From Aureococcus anophagefferens (lineage: Eukaryota > Sar > Pelagophyceae > Pelagomonadales > Pelagomonadaceae), in contig NW_008705572.1 in assembly GCF_000186865.1 (NCBI RefSeq), positions 641,384 to 705,383 on the forward strand: a DNA stretch of 64,000 nt, written 5' to 3'. The position numbers and the translations under genes are program-made. Each line of letters opens with the position of its first letter. Positions within the stretch are counted from its first letter, which is position 1. Under the pieces are notes generated by a model. It did not search any database and was not told the origin of the DNA. It worked only from the letters and a program-made list of their open reading frames with translations. Of the stretch, positions 2,825 through 47,600 are shown in pieces.

Positions 2825-3307
2825 ATCTGTAGCGGCTCAGCCCATGCTCTCTCCACAACCTGCCCTTCCTACAACCTACATCCTCACCAACCTCGCCAAC
2901 CTACCCAACCTATCCAACCTACAGTGCCCCGATCAACGTACATCTAGGTGCACCCATAGGAAATTAATTAATAAAGATCAATCATCGAATTCCGGCCGGC
3001 GGAGCCAGAGTCATTAGTCGTCCATAGAGGCTGTACGTCGACCGCGCGCGCGGGCGCGGTGTCGCGGCGGTCCGCGGGCTGAAATCACGGCCAAAATTGG
3101 GTTATGGTCGTATCAAAGCAAGTTTGATGATATTCGCGCGTTAATTGCACGTTTGCGATGGCTTTTTGCGCGCGGTCGCTGGTTCGGGTCGCGAAATCGC
3201 AAGATTTAACTTCAACAAATGTGCTGAAGTTCAACAAAAATGTTGACTTTTAAATCCAGGCTATCAGAATCTGAGTTTTGATCGGTGCACTGCCAACCTA
3301 CCACGCT

Positions 3308-3394
3308 CCTACCCAACCTACCCAACCTACCCAACCTACCCAACCTACCCAACCTACCCAACCTACCCAACCTACCCAACCTACCCAACCTACC
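3308..3394. repeat. 9-bp minisatellite (CCTACCCAA)n, about 9.7 copies
   Basis: Nearly perfect head-to-tail copies of CCTACCCAA. The 9-bp period keeps all frames open, giving low-complexity Thr-Gln-Pro or Gly-Trp-Val runs that should not be taken as protein. The unit is only loosely telomere-like. A diverged version lies about 400 bp to the left, next to the 5' end of the RING gene. Confidence 0.9.
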
Positions 3395-3399
3395 CCGCC

Positions 3400-3472
3400 C
3401 AGAGAAGGCGCCGAGCTCGAAGTAGGTCGCGCCCTCGTGGAAGCCCGCGGCCTTCGGCCACCACACGCGCAA
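3400..3472 (-). pseudogene. possible orphan coding fragment beside the minisatellite
   Basis: About 24 codons (MRVWWPKAAGFHEGATYFEL, then GAFSG) have almost pure G/C third positions and a natural residue composition. The reading then enters the 9-bp repeat with no start or stop context of its own. It may be an exon remnant cut by repeat growth, or an exon of an unresolved gene. No family is recognised. Confidence 0.25.
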
Positions 3473-11460: not shown

Positions 11461-12749
11461 ATGAAGTTCACGGACGCCGTGGGCGAGGCCTGGGAACAGC
11501 TCAAGGACGACAAGAGCGACGTGACCTACGTGTTGGTGGGCTACGACGACAAGAAGACCATCGGGCTCAAGAGCAAGGGCCCCGGCGGCCGCAAGGCGTG
11601 CCTGGCCCTCTGCGGTAGCGACAGCGACATCGTCTTTGGCGGCTTCCGCGTGACGGCCGTCGACGACCGGTCGAACACGACGAGCCGGCGGACGAAGTTC
11701 GTCTTCTTCCACTACCAGGCGCCGAACGCGCCGATCAGGGCAGGAAAAGGGTGATTCAACGTCGCTTCAACGTGAGTGTTCCGCGCGCGCGCGTTTCGGA
11801 AACAGCACCTACGCTTCGAGAGCGCTCCGAGAGATGATCGCTCGTCCAAAAATCAGCCGAAACGAGCGGAAAACGACCGAGATAGGAGCCTTTGAAATTG
11901 AGAATTTCGCACCCTTTTCCTGCCCAGGCGCCGATGATGGCCAAGGCCAAGGCCGGCAGCCACCGCGCGGAGTGCGAGCGCGTCATGTCCGGCTCGCACG
12001 TCCAGTTCCAGGTCGACGGCCTCCACGAGCTCTCCGAGGCCGAGATCGTCGCCAAGCTCCGGCGCTGCGGCGGCGCGCACCAGCCCACGGGCTTCGACTT
12101 CGGCGAGGGCGACGTCGGCGAGGGCAGCGCCGAGGCCGCGCCCGAGGCCGCGCCGGCCATGAACGCCCGCGACTTCGCCCAGGACAACGTCAAGGCGCCC
12201 CTCGACGCGGCCGCGGAGCACGCGGCGCGCGCGAAGGAGTACCAGACGGCGAACGTGCTCAACTCCAGCGCGAACGCCGCCGCCAAGGCCGCCGCCGCGC
12301 CGGCCGCGACGCCGCCGCCGCCGCCGACGGCCGCCATGGCCGCCGCGACCATCGCCGCGCCCGCGGCGCCGCCGGCCGCGGCCGCGGCCGCGGCGCCGCC
12401 GGGCGGCGACGGCGTCGTGCTGCTCGTGACGTCCATGCCGTCGACGTCCGTCATCGACGGCGCGCAGAACTTCCTGCGCAACATCTTTCGCGGCAAGAAG
12501 ATCCCCGTGGAGGAAATCGACGGCTTGAAGCCCGAGAACAAGGAGGCGCGGTCGGAGCTCTTCGCGTGCAGCGGCCTCCGCGGCCAGTACCCGCAGGTCT
12601 TCACGCGCGCCGGGGGGGCGTTGGCCTTCGTCGGCGACTTCGAGAAGATCCAGTCCCTCAACGACTGCGAGGACCTCCCCGCGGACGTCCTCGCCGCGAA
12701 CCCGGCCATCGAGACGTTCTCCGCCGTCTTCAAGGCCTACATGGGCTAG
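11461..12749 (+). CDS. coactosin-like ADF-H domain fused to an SH3BGR/glutaredoxin-like domain
   Basis: Two exons, 11461-11727 and 11928-12749, giving 362 residues. The intron is an introner element. Residues 1 to about 140 are an ADF-homology domain of the coactosin type (MKFTDAVGEAWEQLKDDKSD, then RRTKFVFFHYQAPNAP, GSHVQFQVDGLHELSEAEIV), expected to bind actin filaments. A helical, Ala-rich linker follows. Residues about 247-355 resemble SH3BGR-like thioredoxin-fold proteins (GDGVVLLVTSMPSTSVIDGA, GLRGQYPQVFTRAGGALAFV). Excision of the intron rebuilds ...YQAPN-APMMAKA... exactly; without it translation stops nine codons past the junction. I know of no standard family with this domain order, so the fusion deserves transcript support. 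Confidence 0.8.
11736..11927 (+). mobile_element. introner element copy 1 (192 bp), acting as intron in sense orientation
   Basis: Perfect 16-bp terminal inverted repeats GGGCAGGAAAAGGGTG (11738-11753) and CACCCTTTTCCTGCCC (11910-11925), flanked by an 8-bp target duplication GCGCCGAT at 11728-11735 and 11928-11935. The predicted intron is 11728-11927: its 5' GC comes from the left duplication and its 3' AG from the element end. The interior, starting GATTCAACGTCGCTTCAACG, is shared with three other copies in the window. It is far more AT-rich than the exons, has no coding capacity and is therefore non-autonomous. Confidence 0.93.
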
Positions 12750-13223
12750 GCGGGGGGGGGCGCGTCGCTTCGCTAGTCACACATTGCATGCTACGGCTGT
12801 GTCAATTGCGCTTCGCGGGGGCAGCACTTGGGGCTTGTGCGCGCTTACGAGGCGTCTTGCGATCTCGAGGCGCCGCGGCGTGTTTTTGCTCCGACGACGT
12901 CGGCGCCGGGAGGCGGCGGAGGCGATTTTAACTTCCTCAAATTCCGCCTTGCCCCGCCTGCCACAGGCGTTCAGGCCCCCACCACCCCGCTGGACCCAGG
13001 TGGGATGAAGATGGTGAGGCCGATCATGAGGACCGGGTCGATGCCCGGCGCGATGGTCACGTCGTAAACGTGCTCGCGAACGTAATATACAGGTGGCCCG
13101 ATGCTCGGCGAGCAGAGGCGACTTCAAGATGCACGGCACGGCGCACCGAGCGACGCATGCCGTGTGCCGCCTCACTCGCAGCGCCCCCCCTCCACCCGGT
13201 AGACCCCGACGAGACGCGCAGCG
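12750..13223. other. intergenic region between convergent genes, with a possible gene remnant
   Basis: 474 bp between the stops of the coactosin fusion and the VOC-like gene. Apart from the short minus-strand coding-like segment at 12971-13075, no feature is seen. Confidence 0.5.
12971..13075 (-). pseudogene. short coding remnant or unassigned terminal exon
   Basis: Minus-strand codons read REHVYDVTIAPGIDPVLMIG, then LTIFIPPGSSGVVGA and a stop. The central part has pure G/C third positions and a natural hydrophobic pattern. The D-V-x-I-A-P-G-x-D-P-x-L-M pattern is loosely reminiscent of the end of LURP-one/tubby-like domains. There is no start codon or convincing upstream exon, so it may be a fragment of a lost gene. 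The family hint is weak. Confidence 0.3.
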
Positions 13224-14797
13224 TTAGGTCGGGTGGCAGAACTCGAACTTGGGGACGTCGGTGAGGCAGGACGCGTCGAAGCGGCCGTGGAGCTCGACGC
13301 CGAGGCCGCCGAAGCCCGCGGTCCAGACGGAGCCGTAGCTCGCGTCGGACCCGTCGCTGTCCGTCTCGCGGTGGGGCATGTAGGGGACGTCCGCGGCGTC
13401 GAGGAGGGGCGCGAACTCGTCGAGGGCGTCGGCGTCGTCGACCGCGAGCCCGACGTGCGAATCGAGGTACGCGTCCCATCCCGCGCCCTCGCCCATGAGC
13501 TTGCCGTGCGCCTCCTTGACGTAGGTCTCGTAGGCCGCGACGCCGCGCGGTCCCGGCCGCGCGCCGGCGTTGCGCACGGCGACGATCTCGACGAGGGAGC
13601 CGTTGGCCGCGCCGTACGCGGCCGCGCCGGGCACCTGGGCAGCAAAAGGGTGATTCAACGTCGCTTCAACGCGAGCGTTCCGCGCGCGCGCGTTCCAAAC
13701 AAAACATCCACGCTTCAAGACCGTTCCGAGAGATGATCGCTCGTCCAAGAATTAGCCAAAACGAGTGAAAAATGGCCGAGATATGAGCCTTTGAAGTTGG
13801 GAATTTCGCTCTCTTTTGCTGCCCCGCCGGGCACCTCGACGGCGCGGTAGCCGCAGTTCCGCTGCGCGCCGCCTTTGACGTCGAGGTCGAGCCGCGCCGT
13901 CGCGACGAAGGCGTCGAGCTCCTCGGGCCGCGTCGCGGGCACGGACACGCGCACGAGCTGCATGGGGTAGCGCGCGGAGCCCTGGGCCTCGTCGCCCGCG
14001 GTACTCGTGAGCCACCGCGTCATGTCGGCCGTGGAAAAGTGGAGGCGCGACGCGACGGCGCACTCGTCGGCGCCGAAGGGCGCGTAGTCGAAGCCGTAGA
14101 AGCGGTCCTCCTTCAGGGACCGCCGCGCGAGCGACGAATAATCGGAGTGGACCTCGAGCACGCCGCCCGTCCGCTCGTCGACGACGTAGGCCGCGTAGGT
14201 CGTCACGTTGTCCTGCGGGTTGGCGTAGGTGCGCTGCAGGTAGGGCACGCCGTAGCGGTCGAAGGCCTGGGTGAACTTGGCCAGGTCCTTGACCCAGAAC
14301 GCGAGCGAGAGGTGCATCCACGCGTCCCAGCCCTCCCAGGTCGCGCCGCCGAGCACGCCGTGCGCCTCCACCCAGGACGCGACCCAGTCGTCGACGGCGA
14401 GCGGGCCGCTCAGCGCCTTGGCGGTGCGCACGGAGTGGATCTGGTACGCGAGCGGCGTCCACGTGCACCGGGACGCGCAGACGTGGCCGGACGACCACGT
14501 GCCGTCGTCCGGCGACCGCTTCGACGCGTCGAGCGTGAAGTTCGCGGCGGAGGCCGACTCGTCGAAGAGCTCGTTGATGAAGGCGCACTCGCCCGACGGG
14601 CTCGTCGAGAAGCTCGTGCGCTTGTAGTAGGACACCTTGTACCGCTTCGTCGTCGCCGGCTTGCACGTCGACGTCGCGGCCAGCGACGCCGCGAGCGGCG
14701 CCGCGCCGCGCTGGTGCCGCAGGGCGCCCAGGATCGCGAAGGCGATGGCAGAGGCCGCGACGGGCGCCCATCGTCTCCGGTGGGGCTGCCCCATCAT
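13224..14797 (-). CDS. secretory VOC/glyoxalase-fold-like protein, interrupted by an introner
   Basis: Exons 13835-14797 and 13224-13634 (minus strand) give 457 residues. An N-terminal hydrophobic segment (about 12-25, APVAASAIAFAILGAL) suggests a signal anchor. Two stretches look like halves of a vicinal-oxygen-chelate fold: HLSLAFWVKDLAKFTQAFDR with YGVPYLQRTY, and near the C-terminus SHVGLAVDDADALDEFAPLL with DAADVPYMPH. Paired Cys residues fit an oxidising compartment. Metal ligands cannot be assigned, so activity is unknown. Intron 13635-13834 starts with GT from the target duplication; the join restores ...AVE-VPGAAAYG... in frame. Confidence 0.72.
13635..13826 (+). mobile_element. introner element copy 2 (192 bp), spliced in antisense orientation
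   Basis: Ends GGGCAGCAAAAG (from 13637) and CTTTTGCTGCCC (to 13824), with an 8-bp target duplication CCGGGCAC at 13627-13634 and 13827-13834. The host gene is on the minus strand while the element interior reads on plus. On the gene strand the duplication reads GTGCCCGG, providing the 5' GT, and the element end provides ...CTGCCCAG. The intron is 13635-13834, 200 nt. Confidence 0.93.
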
Positions 14798-14945
14798 CGT
14801 CGGTGAAAATCGTCACGCTCGGCTTCACTCACTTTCTAATAACTTCAGCTTAGGCCGCCCCGCCTCAAGTCCCGCCTCATGTGACCGACCGGCCTGGGCC
14901 AGTTCCCCTCGGCTTCACCGCGGCCACGACGGACCTCAAAACACA

Positions 14946-17900
14946 TTACAGGTCGTTCACATGCGCGTCCGAGTCGGGCTCCTGGCTCGCGCGCCGGTCC
15001 GGCGACTTGGGGCTCGAGGACCCCGCGGCCTTGACGGACTCGGTGCCCGTCATCGCCGCGTTCTGGAAGCGGATGCCGCGGCCGCGCTGCCGCGCGGGCG
15101 AGCCCGTCGGCGACGCGTCGGGCGACGCGCCGTCGCCGTCGGGCGGCGGCGGCGGCGGCGGCGCGTCGCCGCGCTTCGCGGCGCCGCCGAAGAGGGACCG
15201 GAAGGTGCCGCGGGCGCCGGGCGTCGGCGCGGACCTGGACGCGGCCAGCTCGCCGATTGGCGCCGGCGACGGCGACCGCGACTTGGCGCTCGCGGGCCGC
15301 GACCGGCCGCTGCCCGGCCGCGGGAGGAAGGAGAGGCGGCTCCTGCGGGGCGTGGGCTCGCCGTCGCTCTCGGGCGCGTCGGGCGTCTTCGGCCGGCGGC
15401 TCGACGCGAACGGCGACGTCGGCCGGAACTTGGCGAAGGGCGACGACGGCAGCGCGAAGCGGCCGCTGCCCTTGCCGAAGGCCGGCGGCGCGGACTGGGA
15501 CTCGGGCAGGGGCGTCGCCGACGACGGCAGGGGCGCCGTCGCGCCGAGCATCTCGAGCGACGTGCGCCGCGCGCGCGGCGCGGGCGCGGTCTGCGACATG
15601 CGGCGGTCGCCGAGGAGCAGCGCGCCGTCGGACTGGGCCTTGCCGAGCAGGGGCAGCACGGAGCTCCGGCGCCGGCTCGGCGCGGGCGCGCCGAGGTCGC
15701 TCTCCTCCTCGAACATCTTGCCGATCTTCCCGGAGGACCGGCCGAAGATCGACGACCGCCGCGGCGCGGTGCCGCCGAGCTGCTGGAGCCGGCGCCCCGC
15801 GGCCGTGTTCGCGCCCTTCTCGAAGCCCGAGGTGATCGCGAGGGCCGCGGCCTTGGCGCGGCTCTCGAGAAGCGCCTCCTCGCGCTTCTCGCGCTTCTTC
15901 GCGGCCTCGGCCTCGCGCTGCTCGCGCGCCTTGATCCGCGCGGCGCGCTTCGGGTTCACCATCTCCAGGAGCTTGAACTGCTCCGCGTCGAAGGTCGTCA
16001 CGAAGGACATGTGGCGCTGCATCTTCCGGAGCTTCGCCGCCTCCTTGCGCGCCTGCTTCTCGCTCAGGTTCTTGGCCCGGGCCTTGGCCTCCTTCTCCTT
16101 CTGCGCGTGGATGACGAGCGCGGCTAAATTGTCGCGGATCTCCTGGGGCGACGGCGGCGGGAACGGGCCCGCGAGCTCGACGCCGACGCCAAGAACGTGG
16201 AGCGCGCCCGCGTCGGCGTCGTCGTAGGGCCCCGCCCTGTGCCACAGGTCCTCGAGCGGCGAGTCGTCGACGGCGTCGTCGTCGCCGCCCGGCGTGTCGG
16301 CCGCGGCGGACGCGTCGTCGTCCTCCCGCTCGTCGTCGCTGCTGCTCGACGACGAGCTCGAGTCGCTGTCCGCGTCCTCGTCGCGCATGGCGCTGAAGCG
16401 CCGGTTCAGCGCGTCGAGCCGCGACCGGCCCCGGTCGGAGACGCACGCGTAGCACGCGACGCACTTGGCGTGGTTGCCGTCGCGGCGGTCCGACTCGCGC
16501 TCGTCGGGCGGCTCGCCGACCTCCTCGAGCATGACGAGCTCGTTGGCCAGCAAAATGCAGAGCACGAGCATCGCGTTTTCGTGGCGGTCGGACCGGATGT
16601 CGGGCCGCGGCGGGCCGGGCACGCCGCGCGCCGCCTCGGCGCGGCCGCTGAAGCGGTCGCGCCGGAAGCCCTCGAGGGACTTGGCGATGGCCTCGAGGCG
16701 CGCCTCGATCGCGTGCTTCCGCTCCTCGCTGTTCGGGTCCTCGGCCGATAGCTTCGCGGCCTCCGCGGACAGGAGCTCCATGCGCCGCGACCGGTCCAGG
16801 TCCGCCTTGGCGAAGCCCGACGCGACCTTGGCGAACTCGGCGTCCCACGAGTCGACGCGGGCGAGGTACTCGCCCCAGAGCGCGCGCGTCGCCGCGACGT
16901 CCGCGGCGAGCGCGTCGCCGACCGCGCGCTCCGCGAGCCGCGCGGCCTGCTTCGCGCGCTTCGCCGCGTCCTCGAGCTGGAGCGTGCTCTTGGACGCGCG
17001 GCCCCGGATGGACACGAGCGCCGCGGCGTTGCCGACGGCGAGCGCGTGCGCGAGCGACGCGGGCCCCCGGCGCTCGGACCGGAGCGTCGCGAGGCGCTCG
17101 AACTGCTCCTCGGCCTCGAGGCGCTTGCGGTCCGCCGTCGAGTCCGCCGGGCCGAACTTGGCCGCCGCGCGCAGCGCCGCCTTGCAGCACTTGGCGCCCT
17201 TGCCGTAGAGCGTCGCCTCCTCGACGAGGTGCGCGCGCGCGCGGCGCCGGTTCGCGGCCATCGCGCCCTGCGCGGCGGCCTCGGCCTCCCGGGCGATCCT
17301 GGCCTTCTCCGCCTCGTTCTTCCGGTGCGCCTCGTGGATGCGCTCCACGGCGTTGGCGTGCGTGCCGTCCTCGTGCGCCGCGAGCGCCGCGGGCTCGCCG
17401 CGGCCCTCGGGGCACGCGCGCGCGCACGGCACCGCGTCGAGGAAGCCCTCGAACTCGCCGCGCAGGGTCACGGTGCCCGTGCCCGCGCCCAAGCCGCAGG
17501 CGCCCCGGCACAGGTCCCGGCAGCCGTCGTAGGCCCGCACGAGCCGCGCGAGGCCCAGGAACGCGCGGCGCTCGAGCGCGCGCGTCCGCACCTCGAGCTC
17601 GCGCGCGCGCGCGGCCTTGCGCTGCTCGAAGGCCGTGCGGTGCCGCCGCGGCAGCGACTTCTTCGCCAGGTGGCCGTCCAAGACCTCGATCTCCTCGCGC
17701 AGGAACGCCGCGCGCGCGGTCGCGCCCGCGCCGACGAGCGCCGCGGACCCGGGCTCCTCGAACTCTTCGTAGGCCGCCTCGGCCTCGAGCTCCTCGGGCG
17801 TCGCCTTGGACGGGTCCAGGGGCCCGCGCTTCAGCGATTCGCCCTCGTCGCCGAGGCCGTAGTCGCCCTCCATGACCTCGTGCTCCTCGATCTCGCGGTC

Positions 17901-20900
17901 GTCGTCGGAGTCGCCGCCGCAGAGCAACCGCCCGAAGTCGCGGTCGTAGTCCTCCTGGTCGTAGAGCATGGGCTCGCCGTCGTCGTCGCCGCCGTCGTCG
18001 TCAACCTCCGCCGGGGGCGGCGCCGCCGCCGGTGTGTCGCCGCCGGCCGACAGCGCGAGCGCGCGGACGCTCGACCGCCGCCGCGCGACGGACCTGGGCA
18101 GCAAAAGGGTGATTCAACGTCGCTTCAACGTGAGTGTTCCGCGCGCGCGCGTTCCGAAACAAAGCATTCACGCTTCGAGACCGTTCCGAGAGATGATCGC
18201 TCGTCCAAAAATCAGCCGAAACGAGTGGAAAACGGCCGAGAAAGGAGCCTTTGAAGTTGGGAATTTCGCTCTCTTTTGCTGCCCTGCGACGGACGCGCGC
18301 TTGACCTGGAGCGCGCTCCCCCGCGCCGTCGCGCGCTGGAGCGTGACCGTCGAGATGCCCTTGAGGTCCTCCATGTAGTCCCCGGCGCCCTTGGACATGG
18401 CCCGCCGGAGCACGCCCGCCTCGGCCTTGGCCGCGGACATGACCTCGCCGTCGGGCTCCGCCGCGTCGTCCGCGACCACGCCCAACGGGTCCCGCACGAG
18501 CTCGTCGTCACCGAAGGACGCCGCCGCGCCGCCGTAGTCGTCGACGTCCTCCCAGCGGTCCCCGAAGTACTCGGACACGGCCGTCCGGAGCGTCGGGACG
18601 AGGCCGCGGTCGCCGTCGGCGAGGAACTCGCGCGCGGCGTGCGCCGCGTAGAAGAGCCACGCGGGCGCGACGAGCCAGTTCGGCGCGGCGCCCGCGGGGA
18701 AGATGTCCGTGCACCGCGCGTAGACGCGATCCACGAAGCAGCCCTTGACGAAGCGCAGCAGGAACGCGCGCTTCTCGTGGCCCGCGGCCTCGCGGCCGCT
18801 CGCCGTCGCCGGCGCCAAAGCCCGGAGCGGCCAGAGGGACTTGAGGCGCGCCAGCACGGAATTGCGGCTGTGGGCGACGAGGTGGGCCTCGAGCTTCTCC
18901 GCGACGTCGGCGTCGAGCTCGACGGTGAGCGTGACCTGGCCCTGGAGCGCGTCGTCGAGCGACCCGGCGCCGAGCGCCTGCGCGTCCGCGCCGAGGCGGC
19001 CGCGGCGCTCGTACTGCTTCACGAAGCCCCGCTGGGACACGCCGACGGTGTGGGTCACGGTCGTCTGCTTCACCTTGTCCTTGACCTTGTCGACCTTCAT
19101 GTGGACCTGCGCGTCGCTCGCGTTGCGCTTGTATTCCGCCGCGTCGCCCGGAGGGACCTCGCCGAGCTTCCGCGCGAGCGCCGCGAAGCGGTCGTAGTCC
19201 AAGCCGCCGCGCTCGTCCTCGTCGAAGCGCTTGAAGATGGCCTCGGCGATGGACGCCCCGAAGGCGCTGAGCTCGCCGAAGCCCACGCGCGCGGCCTTGC
19301 GGAGCAGCACGGCCTTGAGCCGCGCGCGCGCCTGCGTGCCGCCTAGCCCGCGGCCGTCGGGGTCCCGCGCGAAGGCGCCGACGGACGTCGACCCCTCCGC
19401 CTCCAGCAGGTCGCGCAGCTCCTCCGAGGGCATCGTGTCGACGCGGTCCGCGAGGTCCAGCGTGTCCCGGCGCCGCCGCCGCGCGTCCAAGCGGAACGTC
19501 CGCGGGTCCGCGCCGCCGTCGCCGAGCTCCGCCTCCTGGGGCCCCCAGAGCCGCGCGGCCATGTCGTGGAACTTGGCCGCCTCGGAAGTCAGTTCGGCCA
19601 GCGTCGACCCGAGCTCGAACTGGGCGCTCACCTTGCCCAGGAGCTTCGAGGGCCGCGCGGCCTCGGGCAGTTCCGCCTCCGCGTCCGCGACGGGGTCCGC
19701 GCGGCGGAAGATCTGCAGGCGCAGCACCGGCCGCTCGACGAAGCGCTCGCGCCGCCCCGCGGCGCCGCCCTTTTTTTTCCCGCCGCCGCCGACGGCGCCG
19801 CCGCGCGCGGGCACGCGCGCGACGACGACGTCGCACCGTACCCGGTCGAAGTAGGCCGCCCCGTAGTCCCGCGGCACGAAGCGCGCGCAGGCCTCCATCT
19901 CGCGGCTCAGGTCGACGACGGCGCGCGCCTCCGCCGACTTTTCGATGGGCAGGTCGACCCAGAAGACGGACTTCATCTCCGCGACGCCGGAGCCGCGCTT
20001 CGGCGGCGGCGGCGCGTCGTCGACGCTTCCTCGCGTCGACGGCCGCGCGCTGCCCGACGTCGACGGGCGCGCCGACGCCGCCGTCGACGGGCGCGCCGAC
20101 GCGGCCGTCGCCGGCCGCTCGTCGTCGCCGCCGCCGCCGTCCTCGCCGGGCGACACGCCGCGCATGACGTCGAGGAGCGCGCGCCGGTAGTCGAGCGAGA
20201 TGAGCTCCGACGCCGTCACGTCGAGCCGGCACGTGTCCTTCTGGGCCTTCTCCACGTGGTCGCTCAGGTCGTCGAGGTCCTCGTCCTCGCGGATGCCCAG
20301 CGCCGGCGGCGGCGTCTTCAGCGCGTCGACCTTGAGCGTGCCGCGCGCCGCGGCCAGGCGCCCGACCGTGAGCGTGAGGTTCCCGACGCACGGCGGCGTC
20401 GGGTCCTCGGAGCCGTGGTCGAGGTCCGCGTTCGCGCCGTCGGGCGGGGCCGGGGGCGCCGCCCCGCCGGCGACCGCGGCGCCGACGAGGCCGTCGCCCG
20501 CGCGGTGGCCCGCGAGCCGCTTCACGACCGACGAGTCGACGGACGCGAGGTCTTTAGCGTCGCTCCCGTCGCTCAGCTCGCTCGCCTCCTCGTCGAAGTC
20601 CTGCTCGCCCACGCGCACGTCGCCGCGGCCCCGGTCCAGGCCGAGCTGCGACGACGCGAGCGACGACTCGTCGTCGACGACGCGGCTGTCGCGGAGGTGG
20701 TGCCGCGCGGCGCGCTCCTCGACCGTCGCGCGGCTCCGGTCCCCGAGGCGCCGCCGCAGCCCCAGGAGCTTCGCCTTCCAGCCGTCGGCGACGGTCCGCA
20801 GGCTCCGGATGCGGTCCCAGGCCGCGAGCGCGGACGGCACGCCCCGGGGCTTGATCTTCGCGGCCTCGCGCGCGCGCCACCAGCCGACGACGTCGTCGAG

Positions 20901-22606
20901 CGCGTAGGCCCGCACGGCGTTGCGGGGTAGGGCCGCGAGCGCCGCCTCGGCCTCGTCGTCGCGGATGAGCACGTTCCCCAGCGCCTCGAAGACGTCCTCG
21001 AACATGTCGACGTCCAGCCGGACGAGGCCGTCCGCGCCTGGGCAGGACAAGAGAGATTCAACGTCGCTTCAACGTGAGTGTTCCGCGCGCGCGCGTTCCG
21101 GAAAAAGCATCCACGCTTCGAGACCGTTCCGAGAGATGATCGCTCGTCCAAGAATCAGCCGAAACGAGTGGAAAATGGCCGAGATATGAGCCTTTGAAGC
21201 TGGGAATTTCGCTCTCTTGTGCTGCCCTGGTCCGCGCCCTGCGGGAACGACGCCCACTTGTGCGCCATGAGGCTCCGCTCCGCGTCCGCGGACGTCGCCG
21301 CGTCCTCGCTGGAGCTGCCGACGTGCTTCTTCGCGCAGCGCCGGAAGACGTCGCCGCTGTCGCCGCCGCGGCCGCCGCCGCGGCCCGCGAGCGCCTTCTT
21401 GCGCCGCGCGCGGCGCTCGAGCTGCGCGTTGAGCATGACCGCGTCGTCGTCGCGGACGCCGTCGTCGCCCTCGCGCCGCGGCGCGTCCTTCTTCGTCTTG
21501 CGCAGCGCGAGCAGGTCCTCCTTCTCCTTCTGCATTCTTTCGTTCTCGCGCTGCGCCGCCTGGCGGTTCCGCGCCGCGGCCTGGAACTGCGCGCCCGACT
21601 GGCGCCGCGCGTAGTAGCTCGCGAGCGCCTTCTGGTCCGACCGCGCGGACTTGCGCGAGTAGCCCGCCGTGTCGCTCTTCTTCACCATGGCCGTGCCCTC
21701 GTCGTGCGCGCGCTTCCGCGCGGCCGCGGCCGCGCGCGACTCGCCGTCGCCGTGGACGACCTCGGCCTCCTCGTCGGACGACGCGTCGTCGTAGAGCCCG
21801 CGCATGGGCAGCACGACCATGCGCTTCACGTCGCCGCCGCGCTCCGCCTCGTAGGCCCGCGCGTCCTCGGCCTCGCGCGCGCGCTTCCAGTCGATCTCGT
21901 TGAGCCGCGAGTCGATCTGCGCGAGCTCGAGCATGAGGTCCGCCTGCTGCTTGTAGAGGTCCTCCGCGTCCGCGGACGCGGCCCGCTCGAGGGACGCGAG
22001 GTAGCGCCGGATCGCGTCGTCGGCCTTGAGGAAGAGGATGAAGTTGTAGAGATCCAGCAGGTCCTTCGTCAGGGCGAGCTCGCTCTTCAGGTGCTTCGCC
22101 TGCGCGAACGCGCCGCGGACGACGCCCTCGACCACGTCCATGGGCGGCGCGGCGATCTGCTTCATCCGCGCGACGCCCTTGCCCACGGCGTGGAGGAGCA
22201 GCGTGAGTTCCACCCGGTTCAGAGCGCCGTCGCGGTCCAGATCCATCAGCCCGTAGATGAAGCTCACCTTGGGCTCCTCGCGGTCGCTGCAGCAGAGCGC
22301 GAGCGCGCCCCAGATCTCCGTCGCCGACACGCGGCCGCGGCGCGTCTGGTCGAAGTAGGAGAAGTGCTTGTGGCCCACCTCCGGCGTGAGCTCCAGCACC
22401 TTGGCGAACTGCTCCTTCGTGAGGAACATACCTTTAGAATAAAATTTACACAAAGTCAACAATCCTCGTCGCGCACCATTATTCTCCCATTCGGTGTCGC
22501 AGAGAGCTTTGAATTTGGAATGCAGCTGTGTGACTCGCGCCAGCGAGAAGTCCTGGTAGTGCTGGAGCTCCTGCGGCACGAAGCCGCTCGAGTAGCTCGC
22601 GCCCAT
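14946..22606 (-). CDS. giant predicted N-myristoylated EF-hand protein (about 2,404 residues)
   Basis: Exons on the minus strand: 22477-22606, 21238-22431, 18295-21037, 14946-18093. Total length is divisible by three and each join is in frame. The N-terminus MGASYS fits an N-myristoylation site. Residues 30-150 hold EF-hand-like units: a loop before FLTKEQF, SYFDQTRRGRVSATE, and a canonical DLDRDGALNRVE. A later one reads KRFDEDERGGLDYDRFAAL. The rest alternates coiled-coil or charged helices (KEKEAKARAKNLSEKQARKE, repeated Arg/Ser phosphosite-like motifs) with disordered Ser/Pro/Asp stretches, including an RPSTAASARPST repeat. The C-terminal 400 residues are Ser/Pro/Arg-rich. A calcium-regulated, membrane-associated scaffold is a reasonable inference; no enzymatic domain is seen. 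Two introns are introners, one is a 45-nt AT-rich intron. Confidence 0.8.
18094..18286 (+). mobile_element. introner element copy 3 (193 bp), spliced in antisense orientation
   Basis: Ends GGGCAGCAAAAG and CTTTTGCTGCCC, with an 8-bp target duplication CGACGGAC at 18086-18093 and 18287-18294. On the host (minus) strand the duplication reads GTCCGTCG and gives the 5' GT; the AG is the element end. The intron is 18094-18294 (201 nt). Removal restores ...VKRASVARRRSS... across the junction. The interior is very close to copies 2 and 4. Confidence 0.93.
21038..21229 (+). mobile_element. introner element copy 4 (192 bp), spliced in antisense orientation
   Basis: Ends GGGCAGGACAAGAGAG and CTCTCTTGTGCTGCCC (one mismatch), with an 8-bp target duplication GTCCGCGC at 21030-21037 and 21230-21237. 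On the host (minus) strand the duplication reads GCGCGGAC, so the 5' splice site is GC; the 3' AG is the element end. The intron is 21038-21237. The join restores ...FPQGADGLVRLD.... Confidence 0.93.
22432..22476 (-). other. predicted 45-nt spliceosomal intron in the EF-hand gene
   Basis: On the minus strand it starts GTGCGCGACG and ends TTCTAAAG. It is strikingly AT-rich against about 70% GC exons. Removal turns ...ENNG-ARRGLL...SKG-MFLTKEQF into the expected EF-hand-like ENNGMFLTKEQF. It is a multiple of three without a stop, so gene finders may keep it as coding. Confidence 0.65.
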
Positions 22607-22708: not shown

Positions 22709-25453
22709 GTGACCGCGCCGATGGGCGGCGGCGCGATGGGCAGCCCGCCCTACTACGGGGGCACGCCCCACGTGGACAACCCGCTCCTCCGGGGCGGTGG
22801 CGGCCACGCGAGACACCAGAACAGCTGCAGCCGCTCGTGCCGAGTGATGACGGCCGCGACGCTGCTATCAACCGCCCTCGTCTGCGTCGCGCGCCTCGCG
22901 CCCGTCCACTACCAGCACCACGCCGTCGATCAGTCGCTGGCGCTCCTCGACGACGACGCGGCGGCCGCCGCGGCGAACGCCGGCGACGCCGACGGCGCCG
23001 GGGACGCCGACGGCTCGCGGACGACCGCGGACGTGAACGGCGACCACCCGTTCGGCGCCGCGGGCGCGCCGGACGCGAGAACAGCGGACGAGGACTCGCC
23101 GACGGCGGCGCCGAGCGAGGACCCGTCGGCGCCCCACTACTGCAGCTGGACGAACTACCTCGAGGTGCCGCCCGTGAACTGCATCCCCCAGCACAACGTC
23201 GGCGCGTGCGAGTGGTGCGCGCTCAACTGCGGCGAGGCGAAGAAGGAGGGCAAGCTGCTCCGGGGCACGTGCCACTACTGCGAGGACAAGTGCGACACGC
23301 GCTACGAACCGTCCAAGGCGCCGTCGGCCGCGCCGTCGTCGTCGACGGCCGCGCCGACGACGGCGACGGCCGCGCCGACGGACGGCCCGTCCGCGGCGCC
23401 GAGCTACGCGCCGACCTACGCGCCGACGGGCATCCTGACGCCCAAGCCGACGTCCGAGGGCCACGGCTCGAGACCGGGGCCGCCGCCGCCGCCGCCGGAC
23501 CCCTACGCGCCCACGGCGAAGCCCACGCGTCGGCCGAAGCCGACGTACTCGGCGGCGCCGACGAGCCTCTACGCGCCTACCGCCGCGCCCGTCGCGAAGA
23601 CGGACAAGCCGACGTCCGAGGGCCACGGCTCCAAACCCGGGCCGCCGCCGCCGCCGCCGGACTACGGGCCCACGGGCCCGCCGACGAGCGCCGCGCCGAC
23701 GACGGCCGCGCCGACGGCCGCGCCCTCGTACGAGCCCACGCGGCGGCCCACGAAGATCCCGACGTCCGCGCCGTCGGAGGCGCCGTCCGCCCTCCCGACG
23801 CGGCGACCGACGAAGCTCCCGACGACGGCGAGCCCGTCCTACGAGCCCACGACGGCCGCGCCGTCCGGCGGGCCGAGCTCCGTGCCGTCGCCGGAGCCCA
23901 CGCGGCGGCCCACGCGCCACCCGAAGCCGACCGCGTCGTCCTCCCCGACGACGCTCTACGCGCCCTCGCCCGCGCCGTCGTCGATCCCGACGACGAGCGC
24001 CCCGAGCACGTACGCGCCGACGACGCGCGCGCCGTCGGCGGGCCCGAGCGGCGCGCCGTCGGCGTTCCCGACGCTCACGCCCACGGGCGCGCCGTCCTAC
24101 GCGCCGAGCCCGGCGCCGTCCTTCTGCCCGTCGACGACGCCCACGGGCGCGCCGTCGAGCGCCCCCAGCTCGGACCCGAGCCCCGCGCCGTCCTACGCGC
24201 CGAGCCCCGCGCCGTCTTTCAACCCGACGCCGTCGCCGTCGCCCGCGCCGTCCTACGCGCCGAGCCCCGGGCCCTCGACCTTCCCGACGGCGGGGCCCAC
24301 GAGCCTGCCGAGCGGCGCGCCGAGCCCGCGGCCGAGCTACGCGCCGACGCCGCTCCCGTCCGGCGGGCCCACGGTCCCGCCGTCGCCCGCGCCGTCGTCG
24401 ACGCCCTCGGCCGCGCCGTCGGACCGACCGACCTCGACGCCGACGCCCGCGCCGTCGCTCGCGCCGTCGACGAGCGAGCCCAGCGTCGGGCCGTCGTTCG
24501 CGCCGTCGTTCCCGCCGACGCTGGACCCGACGGCGAGCCCGACGACGCCCGCGCCGACGTCCGCGCCGTCCTACCCGCCGACGTCCGCGCCGTCCCTCTC
24601 GCCGACGACGTCGTCGCCGTCCGTCGTCCCCTCGCCGCTGCCGACGAAGGCGTGCGACGACGACTCCTACGGCCACTACCACATCACGCTCTGGGGCCTC
24701 AACGAGGACTTCACGGACCGGGGCGACGCGAACTGCCTGATCACGAAGGCGACGAACGGCGAGGTCGTCTACGACGTCACCTACCCGACGGACCACGAGC
24801 AGATGGAGGACGACCTGTGCGTCAAGGACGGGTGCTACGACATCGTCCTGACGCGGGGCATCGCGACGGTCCACGACAGCAAGGGCCAGCGCTTCCACGT
24901 GCGCAGCGACCAGGCGACGTCGGCGACGTTCTGCGCCATGAACTTCATCGGCGACGGCAGCGCCCTCTACGAGCAGCCGTCGTCGTCGCCGACGACGTAC
25001 TTCCCGACGGTCGCGCCGACGAGGACGTTCGCGCCGTCGACGGCCGCGCCGTCCCTGCGGCCGACGGCGGCCTGCGCGGACACGGAGTGGGGCTACCACG
25101 TGCTGCTGACGGCGGCCTCGGCCGTCGTCGACGACGAGGTCGTCTTCGCGCTCGTGTCGACGGGCGACTCGACGACGAAGACCCTGATCGACGCGAGCTT
25201 CGACATCGCGGGCCGCGGCAGCGCCTTCTTCTGCGCCATGGACGGCTGCTACACGCTGCTGCTGGCGTCCACCGAGGGCACGCTCGTCAAGGTCACGGAC
25301 CACGACGGCGAGGTCATGCGCTGCGCGGGCACGTGCGAGGAGCACGTCTGCCTCGCGGAGGGCGACCTCGCGACGCGGCCCTCCGCGGCGCCGACGTCGC
25401 TCTGGGGCGTCGACGCGACGTCGGACGCGCAGCTGTTTAACGACCACAGGTAG
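22709..25453 (+). CDS. Pro/Thr/Ser-rich membrane or cell-surface protein with Cys-rich modules
   Basis: 914 residues. A hydrophobic segment at about 46-66 (MTAATLLSTALVCVARL) suggests a signal anchor with the bulk outside the cytosol. Residues about 145-195 form a Cys-rich module (HYCSWTNYL, ACEWCALNCGEAKKEG, GTCHYCEDKCDTRY). Residues about 200-650 are mucin-like (APS, PT, SYAPSPAPS) and should be heavily O-glycosylated. The C-terminal region carries two related folded modules (GHYHITLWGLNEDF...CVKDGCYDIVLTRG, and GYHVLLTAASAVV...CAMDGCYTLLLAS), separated by another P/T/S linker. Such Pro/Ser/Thr surface proteins are common in stramenopiles. A wall or extracellular-matrix role is inferred. 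The DNA of the middle part is internally repetitive. Confidence 0.75.
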   Translation: MTAPMGGGAMGSPPYYGGTPHVDNPLLRGGGGHARHQNSCSRSCRVMTAATLLSTALVCVARLAPVHYQHHAVDQSLALLDDDAAAAAANAGDADGAGDADGSRTTADVNGDHPFGAAGAPDARTADEDSPTAAPSEDPSAPHYCSWTNYLEVPPVNCIPQHNVGACEWCALNCGEAKKEGKLLRGTCHYCEDKCDTRYEPSKAPSAAPSSSTAAPTTATAAPTDGPSAAPSYAPTYAPTGILTPKPTSEGHGSRPGPPPPPPDPYAPTAKPTRRPKPTYSAAPTSLYAPTAAPVAKTDKPTSEGHGSKPGPPPPPPDYGPTGPPTSAAPTTAAPTAAPSYEPTRRPTKIPTSAPSEAPSALPTRRPTKLPTTASPSYEPTTAAPSGGPSSVPSPEPTRRPTRHPKPTASSSPTTLYAPSPAPSSIPTTSAPSTYAPTTRAPSAGPSGAPSAFPTLTPTGAPSYAPSPAPSFCPSTTPTGAPSSAPSSDPSPAPSYAPSPAPSFNPTPSPSPAPSYAPSPGPSTFPTAGPTSLPSGAPSPRPSYAPTPLPSGGPTVPPSPAPSSTPSAAPSDRPTSTPTPAPSLAPSTSEPSVGPSFAPSFPPTLDPTASPTTPAPTSAPSYPPTSAPSLSPTTSSPSVVPSPLPTKACDDDSYGHYHITLWGLNEDFTDRGDANCLITKATNGEVVYDVTYPTDHEQMEDDLCVKDGCYDIVLTRGIATVHDSKGQRFHVRSDQATSATFCAMNFIGDGSALYEQPSSSPTTYFPTVAPTRTFAPSTAAPSLRPTAACADTEWGYHVLLTAASAVVDDEVVFALVSTGDSTTKTLIDASFDIAGRGSAFFCAMDGCYTLLLASTEGTLVKVTDHDGEVMRCAGTCEEHVCLAEGDLATRPSAAPTSLWGVDATSDAQLFNDHR

Positions 25454-36080: not shown

Positions 36081-37480
36081 CTAGGTTCGAAACCCGCCCG
36101 GCCGCTCGAAGGGCCGCCGCCGCTTCGACGCGTCGACGACCACGTCGGCCCGCTTCCGGAAGAACGCGGACGCGAGGTCGACGCGGACGAGGTCCTCGGG
36201 CAGGCCCTGGTCGGCCTTGAAGTCGAGCCAGCAGCGCATGACCTCCGGGTGCGTGAAGACGACGAAGCCGCCGACGGGGACGCGGTCGTAGAGGCCGTAG
36301 AGCGCGTCCTGGTAGGACCCGCAGAAGTTGGCGTCGACGCGCAGGACCGCGACGCCGCGGCCCGTCGCGCGGAACTCCGGCACCGTCTCCGCGAAGCGCC
36401 CCGCGTGCAGCGCGACGGCCGAGGCGCCGGCCGCGCGGAGCGTCGCCGCGGCGCCGGCCTCCCGCCGTGCGGCCGTAGCCGCCGATGCGCCCGAAGGCGT
36501 CGAACGCGCGGACGACGCGCGCGCCGCCGCCGACGGCGTCGAGGACGCGGCGCGCGAAGGCGGCCGCGCCGCAGCGCCAGGACCCCAGCTCCACGACGTC
36601 GCCGGCGACCCGCTCGGCCTCGACGACGCGCAGGATCGCCGCGAGCGACGCGAGGCGCGCGACGCCGACCATCGTCGCCGCGCCCGCGCAGGGCCAGTCC
36701 TCGCCGCAGAAGCGGAGGCCGGGGACCATGGGCCGCGTCCGGACCTGGCCCGGCGCGGGGCCCGGCCGGCACTCCTCGCCGGACGCCGCGCCCGTGAGGT
36801 TGAGGACGAGGCGCGCGATCCCGGGGCCGTAGGTCCCAAAGTGCGCGTCGACGGCGGCCTCGAAGGTCTCGGCGTCCATGCGCGGCGCGCGGCGCTCGCC
36901 GGTCGGCGACGCGACGCAGAACGTCGTCCAGGACGGCGGCGGCCGCCCGTCGTCGGCGGGCGCCGACGCGCCGAGCGGCCGCGGCCGCAGCATGGCCTCG
37001 GCGGCCGCGGGCAGGCCGTCGCAGCCCGTCGCGCGGCCCTCGCGGCGGCCCTCGGCCCGCGAGTGCTGCCGGAGCTTGGGCGCCGAGCAGTGCTCGAGGT
37101 CGCCGTTGCAGAAGGCCGCGAAGAGGTCCGCGTACCGCGCCGCGTAGCAGCGCATCGACGTCGCGTTGGTCCGCGGGGCGGNNNNNNNNNNNNNNNNNNN
37201 NNNNNNNNNNNNNNNNNNNNNNNNNNNNNNNNNNNNNNNNNNNNNNNNNNNNNNNNNNNNNNNNNNNNNNNNNNNNNNNNNNNNNNNNNNNNNNNNNNNN
37301 NNNNNNNNNNNNNNNNNNNNNNNNNNNNNNNNNNNNNNNNNNNNNNNNNNNNNNNNNNNNNNNNNNNNNGCAGCCCCGCGACGACGACCGGCCGCAGGGC
37401 GCCTCGCCGTCCTCCGCCGCCGCGAGCGCCAGCGCGGCGGCGACGACGCACCAGAGCTCATGCCCGAAGCGCATGAGCAA
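36081..37480 (-). CDS. TylF/MycF-like SAM methyltransferase, secretory, broken by a gap and a frameshift
   Basis: The signal peptide MLMRFGHELWCVVAAALALA is in one frame. After the N gap (37182-37369) the reading continues in a second frame (TNATSMRCYAARYADLFAAF, NGDLEHCSAPKL; AGDVVELGSWRCGAAAFARR). Near 36460 it must move by one base to a third frame (EAGAAATLRAAGASAVALHA, AVLRVDANFCGSYQDALYGL, VGGFVVFTHPE). The GDVVELG-x-W-x-G and VLRVDANFxxSxxDAL motifs match TylF-type O-methyltransferases. One extra G on the coding strand near 36459-36463 explains the shift, either assembly error or true mutation. The gene ends at 36081 in the third frame. Confidence 0.65.
37182..37369. other. assembly gap (188 N)
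   Basis: Run of N inside the TylF-like gene. Flanking frames do not agree, so the gap length is not exact. Confidence 0.99.
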
Positions 37481-44679: not shown

Positions 44680-47600
44680 ATGCCGCGACCCGACGACGAC
44701 GACGCGCAGGCCGTGGCGCTGCTCGACCGCATCATCGGCGCGGACCCGGACAACGCCGGCGTGCGCGCCCAGCTGCAGGGCACGATGTGGGCCTCGCCGC
44801 GGCTGCTGCTGACGGCGATCCACGAGCAGGCGACGACCCTGGGCATCGACGACGAGGACTTCCACTGGATCGCCGCGCGGTCCCTGCTGTCGCCGCTGCC
44901 CGACGGCTGGGCCCAGTACAAGGACCACGAGGGGAATCCGTACTACCTCAACGAGAAGACGCACGAGTCCAAGTGGGAGCACCCGCTCGACGAGCACTAC
45001 ATGGCGCTCTACCGGAGCTACGTCTCCCAGCGCCGCGACGCGCCGGAGGTCGTGCTGCCGACGACGCCGCCGCGCCGCGACCGCGGCTCGCGCGCGTCGT
45101 CGCCGCCGTCGCCGCCGCGCGAAGTTTCCCGCGACGCCGCCGCCGCCGCGCCGCCGCCGCCGCCGCAGCGCTACTACGCCGACGCCGAGCCGCGCCAGGC
45201 CTACGAGGCGGCGCCCTACGAGGCGCCGCGAGCGCACCGCGACGCGCCCTACGAGGCGCCGCGCGCCGCGCCCTACGAGGCGCCGCGCGCCGCGCCCTAC
45301 GAGGCGCCGCGCGCCCGCGACGCGCAGCCCTACGAGCGCGCCCGCGACGCGCAGCCCTACGAGCGCGCCCGCGACGCGCAACCCTACGAGCGCGCTCGCG
45401 AGGCGCCGCGCTACGACGCGCCGCGCTACGACGCGCCGCGCTACGAGCCGGAGGCCCACGGCCGCTCCGAGCGCCGCGAGTCGCCGCCGCGCCGCGAGTC
45501 GCCGCCGCGCTACGCCCACGACGCGGCGCGCCCGGAGCGCCACGACGCGCCCCCGCCGTCGCCGAGCCGCGGCGACGACCGGGGCCGCGCGCTGGGCCTG
45601 CTCGACGAGGTGCTCGCGCGCCGGGACGGCCTCGACGCGGAGACGGCCGCGCGGTTCAACAACCAGCTCATGGGCGTGCTCGAGATGCACGCCGTCTTCG
45701 CGGCCCACGACACGCGGCTCCGGGGCGCCCACGACCGCGCGAACCGGAGCGAGCGCGAGGCCGGCGAGCTCCGGGAGCGCGCGGACCGCGCCGAGGGCGA
45801 GCTCCGCGCGGCGCTCGCGGCGACGGCCGAGGAGCGCCGGGCCCAGGGCGGCCTGCGGCGCGAGCTCGACGCGGCCGTCGCCGACGTCGCCAAGCTGCGG
45901 GCCGGCGAGGAGCGCGCGCTCGCGGCGCGGCGCCGCCTCGAGGGCGAGCTCGACGCCGCGGCGCGCCGCGGCCGCGGCGACGGCCTCGCGACGCGCGTCG
46001 AGGCGCTCGAGGGCGAGCTCGAGCGCGCCGAGGCGCGCGCGCGCGCCGCCGCCGAGGAGCTCGGCAAGCGCCTGAAGCTCGACGACGGCGCGGGGACCCA
46101 GGTCGCGGCGCTCGAGGCCGACGCCGCGGCCAAGGAGCGGACGATCGCGGACCTGGAGGCGAAGCTCCACTGCGCTCTCGTCGCCGGCGAGGCGCTCCAG
46201 CAGGAGTGCGACGACCACGCGGCGCGGGCCGCGGCGGCCGTCGACGGGGCCGCGGCGGCGGCGCGCGGCGACCGCGAGGCGTTGGAGGCGGCGCTCCGGG
46301 AGGCGCGCGCGGTCGCCGAAAGCGCGGCGGCCGCGAACGAGGACGGGGCCGCGCGCGTCGGCCGCCTCGAGGCCGCCTGCGCGGCGGCGCGGCGCGAGCG
46401 CGACGCGGCGCGCGAGTCCGTCGCCGAGACCGCCGAGGCGCTCCGCGCGGAGCGCGACGCGCGCGACGGCGCCGCAGGCCTCCTCGAGGCCGCCGAGGCC
46501 GAGGCCGCGGCGCTCCGCGAGGCCGCGAAGCAGGCCCGCGTCGACGCCGAGGCCCTGGCCGTGGCCGAGCGCGCGAGGCACGAGGCCGAGGCCGCCCTCG
46601 CGGCCGCGGAGGCCCGCGCGGGCCGCCTCGAGGGCGCGGCCGAGGACGCGGCGCGCGCGGTCGACGACATGGCGCGCCAGACCGAGGAGACCTACCGGCG
46701 GGAGACGCGGCGCCTCGAGGCGAAATGCGCCGAGCTCGACGACGCGCGGCAGCGGGAGCGCGCGCGCTGCGAGGACCTCGACGGCGTCGCCGCGGCGCGC
46801 CTCGAGGACGCGGACGCGCTCCGCGCGTCCCTCGCCGCGGAGCGGGCCGCGCGCAAGGAGGCCGAGGACCTCGTCGCCGCCAAGGGCGACGAGGTCGCGG
46901 CGGCGCGCGGCGACGTCGAGGCCGCGCGGCGCGACGCGGCGGCGCTGCTCGACGCGAGGCACGCCGAGGCCGAGCAGGACGCGGCGAGCCTGCGCGCGGA
47001 GCTCGACCGCGTCGCCGCGGCGAACGCGGGCTTCGTCGAGGCGAGCCGCCTGCGCTGCGAGCGCGCCGAGTACCACGCCGCGGAGTCCGCGCGCGCCGAG
47101 GCGGGGCTCCGCGCGGAGCTCGAAGCCGCGGCCGCGCAGCGCGACGCGCTGGAGGCGCGGATCGCCAAGGCCGACGCCGACCGCGGCGACGCGGCGCGGA
47201 GGGTCGACGAGGCGGCGCGCGCGTCGGAGGATGCGAGGGCGGCGGCGGACGAGCTAGTCGCGGCCGCGGCCGCGCGGGCGACCGCCGCGGAGCGCGACCG
47301 CGACGCGGCGCGGCGCGGCGGCGACACGGCGAGGAAGGACCTCGAGGACCGCCTCGCGCTGGCCTTCGCGGACCTCGAGGCCGCGCGGGGCGACCTCGCG
47401 CGCGCCGAGGCCGACGGCGCGGCCGCGCGGCGCGACGCGGACGCGGCGAGGGCGCGCGGCGACGGCGCGAAGACCGTCGCCGAGGAGGCGATCCGCGACG
47501 CCAAGGTGCGCCTCGAGGAGGAGCGCGCGTCCTTCAAGCGCCAGCTCGACGACGAGCGCGCGGGGCGGCGCGAGGACCGCGCGGCCGTCGACGCGGCGCG

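What the first reader, a model, noticed from the sequence alone, without database searches (positions are those of the whole stretch)
11728..21237. Four near-identical 192-193 bp TIR elements act as introns (introner family)
Copies at 11736, 13635, 18094 and 21038 share ends GGGCAG...CTGCCC and the interior GATTCAACGTCGCTTCAACG. Each is flanked by a perfect 8-bp duplication, and precise excision of element plus one duplication restores an uninterrupted protein at all four sites. Introner elements with transposon features are established in Aureococcus; this window shows a clean subfamily with visible target sites.
Basis: partly seen in the sequence, partly recalled or inferred. Interest (0 to 1): 0.92.

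Follow-up and report, generated by a model that had tools for sequence, protein, structure and literature searches.

The report
Jumping DNA that splices as introns
Four copies of a small jumping DNA element sit inside genes of the brown-tide alga Aureococcus and appear to be cut out of the message as introns; the element belongs to a large, already known kind, and one base at its end appears to set the strand on which it can be spliced.

Summary
Four 192-193 bp elements (11736-11927, 13635-13826, 18094-18286, 21038-21229) have perfect 8-bp duplications. Removing each with one duplication restores an open frame in each host gene. Homologous proteins run through three of the four junctions without extra residues. 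The genome is Aureococcus anophagefferens or a close strain and has 1,523 exact interior matches.

These are introner elements with hAT-like ends: the 3' splice AG comes from the element, the 5' splice GT/GC from the duplicated target. In 97 of 97 copies with enough flank, codon usage puts the gene on the strand predicted by the AG-bearing end. Frame is restored in 94 of 97, against 0 of 97 if only the element is removed.

This kind, in this species, is already known (Huff et al. 2016, seen only through later papers). Not met in what I read: copy 1 and copies 2-4 splice on opposite strands of the same interior; the pattern with AG at neither end has 0 matches; the donor shows no consensus beyond GY. 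No RNA or empty-site DNA was examined, and no transposase was found.

The parts
11736..11927 (+). Copy 1, introner body (192 bp), gene sense +; ends CAGGGCAG...CTGCCCAG
11728..11735 (+). Upstream target duplication of copy 1 (GCGCCGAT), supplies the GC donor; repeated at 11928-11935
11461..12749 (+). Host gene of copy 1: 362-aa cofilin/ADF-domain protein, two exons 11461-11727 and 11928-12749
   Evidence: coordinates read (Pfam PF00241, E 5e-16)
13635..13826 (-). Copy 2, introner body (192 bp), gene sense -; ends CGGGGCAG...CTGCCCAG
13827..13834 (-). Upstream (gene-sense) target duplication of copy 2 (GTGCCCGG), supplies the GT donor
13224..14797 (-). Host gene of copy 2: 457-aa protein without a Pfam match; exons 14797-13835 and 13634-13224
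   Evidence: coordinates read
18094..18286 (-). Copy 3, introner body (193 bp), gene sense -; ends CAGGGCAG...CTGCCCAG
18287..18294 (-). Upstream (gene-sense) target duplication of copy 3 (GTCCGTCG), supplies the GT donor
21038..21229 (-). Copy 4, introner body (192 bp), gene sense -; ends CAGGGCAG...CTGCCCAG
21230..21237 (-). Upstream (gene-sense) target duplication of copy 4 (GCGCGGAC), supplies the GC donor
14946..22606 (-). Host gene of copies 3 and 4: one 2,419-aa protein (its homologue P0021 carries EF-hand domains), three exons

Best explanation
These are introner elements: short non-autonomous DNA transposons (MITEs, hAT-like by end sequence and 8-bp duplication) that insert into coding exons and are removed as spliceosomal introns. 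Insertion duplicates 8 bp of exon. Splicing uses GT or GC at the first two bases of the upstream duplicate as donor and the last two bases of the element (CTGCCC-AG) as acceptor, so 200-201 nt are removed and the protein is unchanged. The inverted-repeat arm, read on the strand where it is the 3' end, also supplies a pyrimidine-rich stretch before the AG. Because the arms are inverted repeats, only the penultimate base decides which end is an acceptor. Copies with AG at one end serve genes on one strand, and copies with AG at the other end serve genes on the other strand. Shown here: anatomy, duplications, frame restoration, coupling of end state to gene strand, copy number. Inferred: that RNA is really spliced at these sites, that a hAT-type transposase moved the elements, and that selection removed insertions that could not be spliced.
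For: Precise ends, 8-bp duplications and restored frames at all four sites. 1,523 interior matches and 1,049 left-end matches genome-wide, 0 in controls. Of 163 distinct copies read, 152 have exactly one AG end and it abuts GY; of the 11 others, 6 have AG at both ends (2 of them with the duplication shifted by a base), and the remaining 5 are L016, L040, L108, L109 and L136. In the interior-defined sample, chosen without regard to ends (the first 76 of 1,523 places), 71 of 76 fit, and L108 also fits by eye with a one-base shift. Codon usage calls the predicted strand in 97 of 97 and the same frame on both sides in 94 of 97; controls 0 of 97 twice. One of the 97, L001, lies in a gene used for training. 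Duplicate positions 1-2 are GY in 142 of 143, against 612 of 3,146 (19%) in adjacent exon; positions 3-8 show no strong preference. Homologous proteins run through junctions 1, 2 and 3.
Against: No transcript was examined. P0020, an A. anophagefferens gene model, leaves our protein at junction 3 and rejoins further on, and junction 4 lacks a clean homologue alignment; such models are predictions. 2 of 97 joined flanks contain a stop (95 of 97 are open). No transposase or longer element with these ends was found: two hAT Pfam searches and one KDZ search gave nothing, but their control genomes were silent too. A search for the same ends with another next base gave 16 matches: 15 introners and one lone match, the same as the chance control of 1. 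L109 and L153 break the GY rule, and L136 and L141 are too worn to judge. One paper says that introners of this species always show canonical splice motifs (PMC7789003, passage), while half of the donors inferred here are GC.
Confidence: 0.95

Rival explanations
1. The copies are RNA-propagated introns that moved by reverse splicing into transcripts followed by reverse transcription, as proposed for fungal introner-like elements.
For: In 97 of 97 testable copies the flanks look like coding sequence in the sense direction, which reverse splicing would give directly. Only 68% of window tiles (861 of 1,266) look coding by the same model, so an excess in genes is not trivial.
Against: Each copy has its own 8-bp target duplication (8 of 8 bases match in 126 of 163 copies, 7 of 8 in 21 more) and inverted-repeat ends. 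A reverse-spliced intron would carry the donor's first bases, not a copy of the new target. The same interior is used in both orientations.
Confidence: 0.03
2. They are ordinary MITE insertions that disrupt pseudogenes or are translated, not introns.
For: No RNA was examined.
Against: 96 of 97 testable copies would break the frame or add a stop if retained. Restored frames, codon bias on both sides and 98%-identical uninterrupted homologues argue for working genes.
Confidence: 0.02
3. The two end states (CA...AG and CT...TG seen along one interior) arose once each and then each spread on its own, so there is no repeated switching of splice strand.
For: On the interior-only trees the strongly supported branches force only 1 or 2 changes, and holding all CA...AG copies as one clade is not rejected (AU p 0.057 with 151 copies, 0.136 with 171).
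Against: The best trees need 9, 6 and 8 changes (bootstrap ranges 6-9 and 7-9 in the last two). Some CA...AG copies are 98.7% identical inside to a CT...TG copy, and L064 (CT...AG) carries the same arm sequences as the CA...AG copy L117 save the one end base.
Confidence: 0.4

Closest known systems
Introner elements of Aureococcus anophagefferens (Huff, Zilberman and Roy 2016, Nature, doi 10.1038/nature20110; text not held, content recalled and seen through citing papers)
   Same: Same species; characteristic intron length about 210 bp against 200-201 bp here (PMC9481584, passage); constant-length direct repeats and terminal inverted repeats (PMC7789003, passage); one splice site carried and the other taken from the duplicated target (recalled); insertion in both orientations (review PMC10228655, passage).
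   Different: Nothing found that places it outside that family, though no sequence from the 2016 paper could be compared. PMC7789003 speaks of canonical splice motifs; half of the donors inferred here are GC. The coupling of end state to gene strand, the absence of CA...TG copies and the lack of donor consensus beyond GY were measured here; whether the 2016 paper reports them could not be checked.
Introner family 4 of Aureococcus sp. TARA_AOS_82_MAG_00129 (Gozashti et al. 2022, PMC9860276, passages)
   Same: Introner in the same genus with an 8-bp duplication.
   Different: It is described as carrying both splice sites and adding 12 bp to the transcript; the elements here carry one site and, by inference, add nothing.
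hAT-superfamily MITEs (recalled)
   Same: 8-bp target duplications and CAGGG-type ends.
   Different: No hAT transposase or autonomous partner was found (controls silent), and one end reads AG instead of TG so that it can work as a splice acceptor.
Symbiodinium microadriaticum introners (PMC9860276 Fig. 2B legend)
   Same: Inverted repeats; element carries the 3' splice site; 5' splice site co-opted from the duplication.
   Different: 4-bp duplications there, 8-bp here; no sequence comparison was made.

Membership tests
Introner (introner element) | Near-identical sequence present as introns in many unrelated genes | tested here: met
   1,523 exact interior matches; 97 of 97 testable copies sit in coding-like flanks
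Introner (introner element) | Insertion followed by excision leaves the coding frame intact | tested here: met
   Same strand and frame in 94 of 97; 0 of 97 in each of two shifted controls
Introner (introner element) | Transcripts spliced exactly at the element boundaries | not testable with these tools
   No RNA reads; only homologous proteins continuous at junctions 1, 2 and 3
Aureococcus introner elements (Huff type) | Terminal inverted repeats and target duplications of constant length | tested here: met
   Inverted arms C(A/T)GGGCAG...; duplication 8 of 8 in 126 of 163 copies and 7 of 8 in 21 more
Aureococcus introner elements (Huff type) | Element carries one splice site, the other is taken from the duplicated exon | tested here: met
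   AG in element, GY in duplicate: 152 of 163, 71 of 76 in the interior-defined sample
Aureococcus introner elements (Huff type) | Canonical splice motifs (as PMC7789003 puts it) | tested here: inconclusive
   Inferred donors: 75 GC, 67 GT, 1 CG of 143; whether GC counts as canonical there is not stated in the passage
Aureococcus introner elements (Huff type) | Insertion between nucleosomes | not tested
   No nucleosome data
Aureococcus introner elements (Huff type) | Empty sites with a single 8-mer in other strains | not testable with these tools
   No genome of another strain could be read; homologues are proteins only
hAT MITE | 8-bp target duplication and CAGNG-type ends | tested here: met
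   the consensus for hAT ends is recalled
hAT MITE | Mobilised by a hAT transposase with matching ends | tested here: inconclusive
   PF05699 and PF14291 gave no match, but no control genome rang either; same-end search found only introners and one lone match

The most novel reading that the evidence does not exclude
A strand-switching introner: because its pyrimidine-rich arms are inverted repeats, a single base at each end (T or A) decides which end is the splice acceptor. The family has changed that base repeatedly, through rare copies with AG at both ends, and so colonises genes with its interior in either direction. The donor carries no sequence signal beyond GY, so its choice may be set by the geometry of the element (the donor always 8 nt outside the arm) rather than by ordinary U1 pairing.
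Probability: 0.25. Interest if true: 0.6.

Novelty: already known. Interest (0 to 1): 0.35.

Why it matters
Introners are a leading explanation of how many introns can appear quickly. This family is large and has young members (the 40 scored matches of each query are 96-100% identical to it, the query itself included) with duplications intact, so the rules of intron birth can be read straight from sequence. The near-absolute coupling of AG end, GY target and gene strand suggests that surviving copies are limited to those that can be spliced. A donor that needs only GY would be a clean test of what the spliceosome requires.

Tried and rejected
Search for an autonomous partner: hAT dimerisation domain PF05699, DUF4371 PF14291 and KDZ PF18758 gave no match in the genome, but none rang in the control genomes either, so this shows nothing. 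The same ends with a different next base gave 16 matches; 15 are introners with a mutated base and one (L082) stands alone, as many as the reversed control. No exact copy of the interior 20-mer in IMG/VR viral contigs. No Rfam match in the window at gathering thresholds.

Hairpin idea: copy 1's transcript folds with the two arms paired (z -2.07; 6 of 200 shuffles fold as well), but copy 3's lowest-energy fold does not pair the arms and its z-score is +0.30. Two of the four copies were folded. Folding therefore does not support a general arm stem.

Repeated switching of end state was tested on trees and is suggested but not established. The 10 pattern matches with AG at both ends shrank on reading. 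Four (L062, L063, L067, L070) appear to be ordinary CT...TG copies where the pattern ran into the duplication. Two (L068, L069) have the duplication shifted by one base. Four (L061, L064, L065, L066) remain, and of these L061 has an imperfect duplication.

Rows dropped: copies with AG at both ends or neither, or with short flanks, were left out of the strand test (97 of 163 kept); copies with AG at both ends or neither, and element lengths outside 185-200 bp or 185-203 bp, were left out of the trees; the base table uses 143 of 163 (one AG end, at least 7 of 8 duplicate bases matching). The samples L001-L060 are the best matches to two query copies and so favour young copies; L087-L146 and L152-L166 were picked by an interior 20-mer, in order along contig 1. 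The 10 loci that exist because of the both-ends pattern also enter the 163. The CT...TG class was not counted genome-wide.
Full report
OBSERVATION. Written in the direction of the host gene, each reads exon - GYNNNNNN - C(A/G)GGGCAG ... CTGCCCAG - GYNNNNNN - exon, with the two 8-mers identical at all four sites. GC content of the bodies is 53-55% in a 73% GC window. Copy 1 is in a + gene; copies 2, 3 and 4 are in - genes, yet all four interiors point the same way.

HOST GENES. With the elements removed, the + gene encodes a 362-aa protein with a cofilin/ADF domain. The first - gene encodes a 457-aa protein without a Pfam match. The second - gene, which holds copies 3 and 4, encodes one 2,419-aa protein. 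Homologues cross junction 1 without extra residues: P0001 at 98% identity, P0002 at 82%, and P0003, which carries a transcriptome (MMETSP) name. P0016 at 98% crosses junction 2. P0019, from Aureococcus anophagefferens (JL720), crosses junction 3. P0020 (JL721) leaves our protein at junction 3 and rejoins further on; P0019's alignment begins only at residue 459, past junction 4 (residue 456), so junction 4 has no clean homologue. Matches of 92% over residues 459-1732 (P0019) and 100% over 2355-2419 (P0020), with differences that look in part like gene-model differences, place the window in A. anophagefferens or a very near strain; the tools give the genome no name.

FAMILY. The genome (49.05 Mb, 86 contigs) contains 1,523 exact matches to an interior 20-mer and 1,049 to the left-end pattern; the reversed patterns match nowhere. 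I read 163 distinct copies. Of these, 152 have exactly one end with AG and that AG abuts a duplication beginning GT or GC. In the sample picked by interior alone (the first 76 of 1,523 places), 71 of 76 fit; one more (L108) fits by eye with a one-base shift, two (L109, L153) do not, and two (L136, L141) are too worn to judge. The duplication is GY at its first two positions in 142 of 143 copies (75 GC, 67 GT, 1 CG), against 612 of 3,146 (19%) in neighbouring exon. Positions 3-8 show no strong preference (the largest is G 48% at position 3, against 36% in exon), and none of the 143 matches GTRAGT. GT is commoner relative to GC than exon composition alone would give (T 12%, C 38%).

STRAND RULE. 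I trained a codon model on two spliced window genes. When trained on some window genes and tested on others it called strand and frame correctly in 16 of 17, 11 of 13 and 92 of 95 tiles. For the 97 copies with enough flank and one AG end, the model put the gene on the strand predicted by that end in 97 of 97 (L001, one of them, lies in a training gene). Both flanks shared strand and frame in 94 of 97 when element plus one duplicate was removed, and in 0 of 97 when the element alone or one base more was removed. The joined 300 bp are free of stops in 95 of 97; 96 of 97 would break the frame or add a stop if retained. Intron phases 0, 1, 2 number 49, 13 and 35.

END STATES. Taken along the interior, copies come as CT...TG (as in copies 3 and 4; copy 2 has CT...CG), which splice on the reverse strand, or CA...AG (as in copy 1), which splice on the forward strand. 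Exact CA...AG copies number 276. CA...TG, with no acceptor on either strand, numbers 0. CT...AG gave 10 pattern matches, of which four seem genuine on reading. CT...TG was not counted genome-wide. Among 177 length-filtered copies of 183 read, the end letters are T/T 81, A/A 63, T/C 17, G/A 6, T/A 6, T/G 3 and C/A 1. In gene sense the non-splicing end is therefore nearly always CA or CG. The simplest reading is an ancestral hAT-like element with CAGGG at both ends in which one end changed to AG. Interior-only trees need 9, 6 and 8 changes between the two states, but branches are weak and a single clade is not rejected (AU p 0.057 and 0.136). L064, with AG at both ends, has the same arms as the CA...AG copy L117 save one base, as a stepping stone would. 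This is suggestive only.

GENES VERSUS SPACE BETWEEN. By the same model 861 of 1,266 window tiles (68%) look coding, against 0 of 211 shuffled tiles. If insertion were random and only unspliceable exonic copies were lost, copies between genes should be common. Instead all 97 testable copies are in coding-like sequence, and rule-breakers are few. Insertion bias towards genes, fast loss elsewhere, or both are needed. A gene bias is reported for 161 of 175 introner-bearing genomes (PMC9860276, section 9). This is inference; no gene annotation of the genome was available.

LITERATURE. Huff et al. 2016 is not held. From citing papers: introner length in A. anophagefferens is about 210 bp (PMC9481584, passage); its introners always show direct repeats and inverted repeats of constant length and canonical splice motifs (PMC7789003, passage), the last of which sits uneasily with the GC donors inferred here; and introners of Micromonas and Aureococcus insert in both orientations (PMC10228655, passage). 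Gozashti et al. 2022 (PMC9860276; abstract, passages, sections 8-10) describe co-option of the 5' site from the duplication in other lineages. Eight library searches were made. 'Introner' with 'both orientations' gave one paper, the review just named, and with 'either orientation' none. Of the 7 papers holding both 'Aureococcus anophagefferens' and 'introner' I opened four; three were seen in the listing only. I found no statement of the end-state rule in what I read, which does not include the 2016 paper or its supplement.

VERDICT. The kind is already known, in the same species. What is added here is a quantitative strand rule, the near-absence of copies with no or two acceptors, and a donor with no clear signal beyond GY.

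Noticed in passing
L016 (G000:C13:941448-944638), element at locus position 1501-1691: The 8-mers on the two sides are nearly reverse complements of each other instead of direct repeats, as might follow from a local inversion.
   Followed up: no
143 copies across L001-L146: Half of the inferred donors are GC rather than GT (75 against 67), and none of the 143 matches GTRAGT.
   Followed up: partly
L153 and L109 (contig 1): Copies with a perfect 8-bp duplication whose AG is followed by GA or CG instead of GY; they may lie outside coding sequence or be unspliced. Wider flanks could not be fetched.
   Followed up: partly
window 3296-3400: Tandem array of a 9-bp unit (CAACCTACC) in a low-GC stretch.
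   Followed up: no
window 23300-24620: Long stretch of short, GC-rich imperfect repeats in steps of 12 bp, probably coding for proline-, serine- and threonine-rich units.
   Followed up: no
window 45208-45416: Tandem repeats with 24- and 27-bp steps inside a long + strand frame.
   Followed up: no
window 37182-37369 and 61591-61640: Two runs of N (188 and 50 bases), assembly gaps or masked bases.
   Followed up: no
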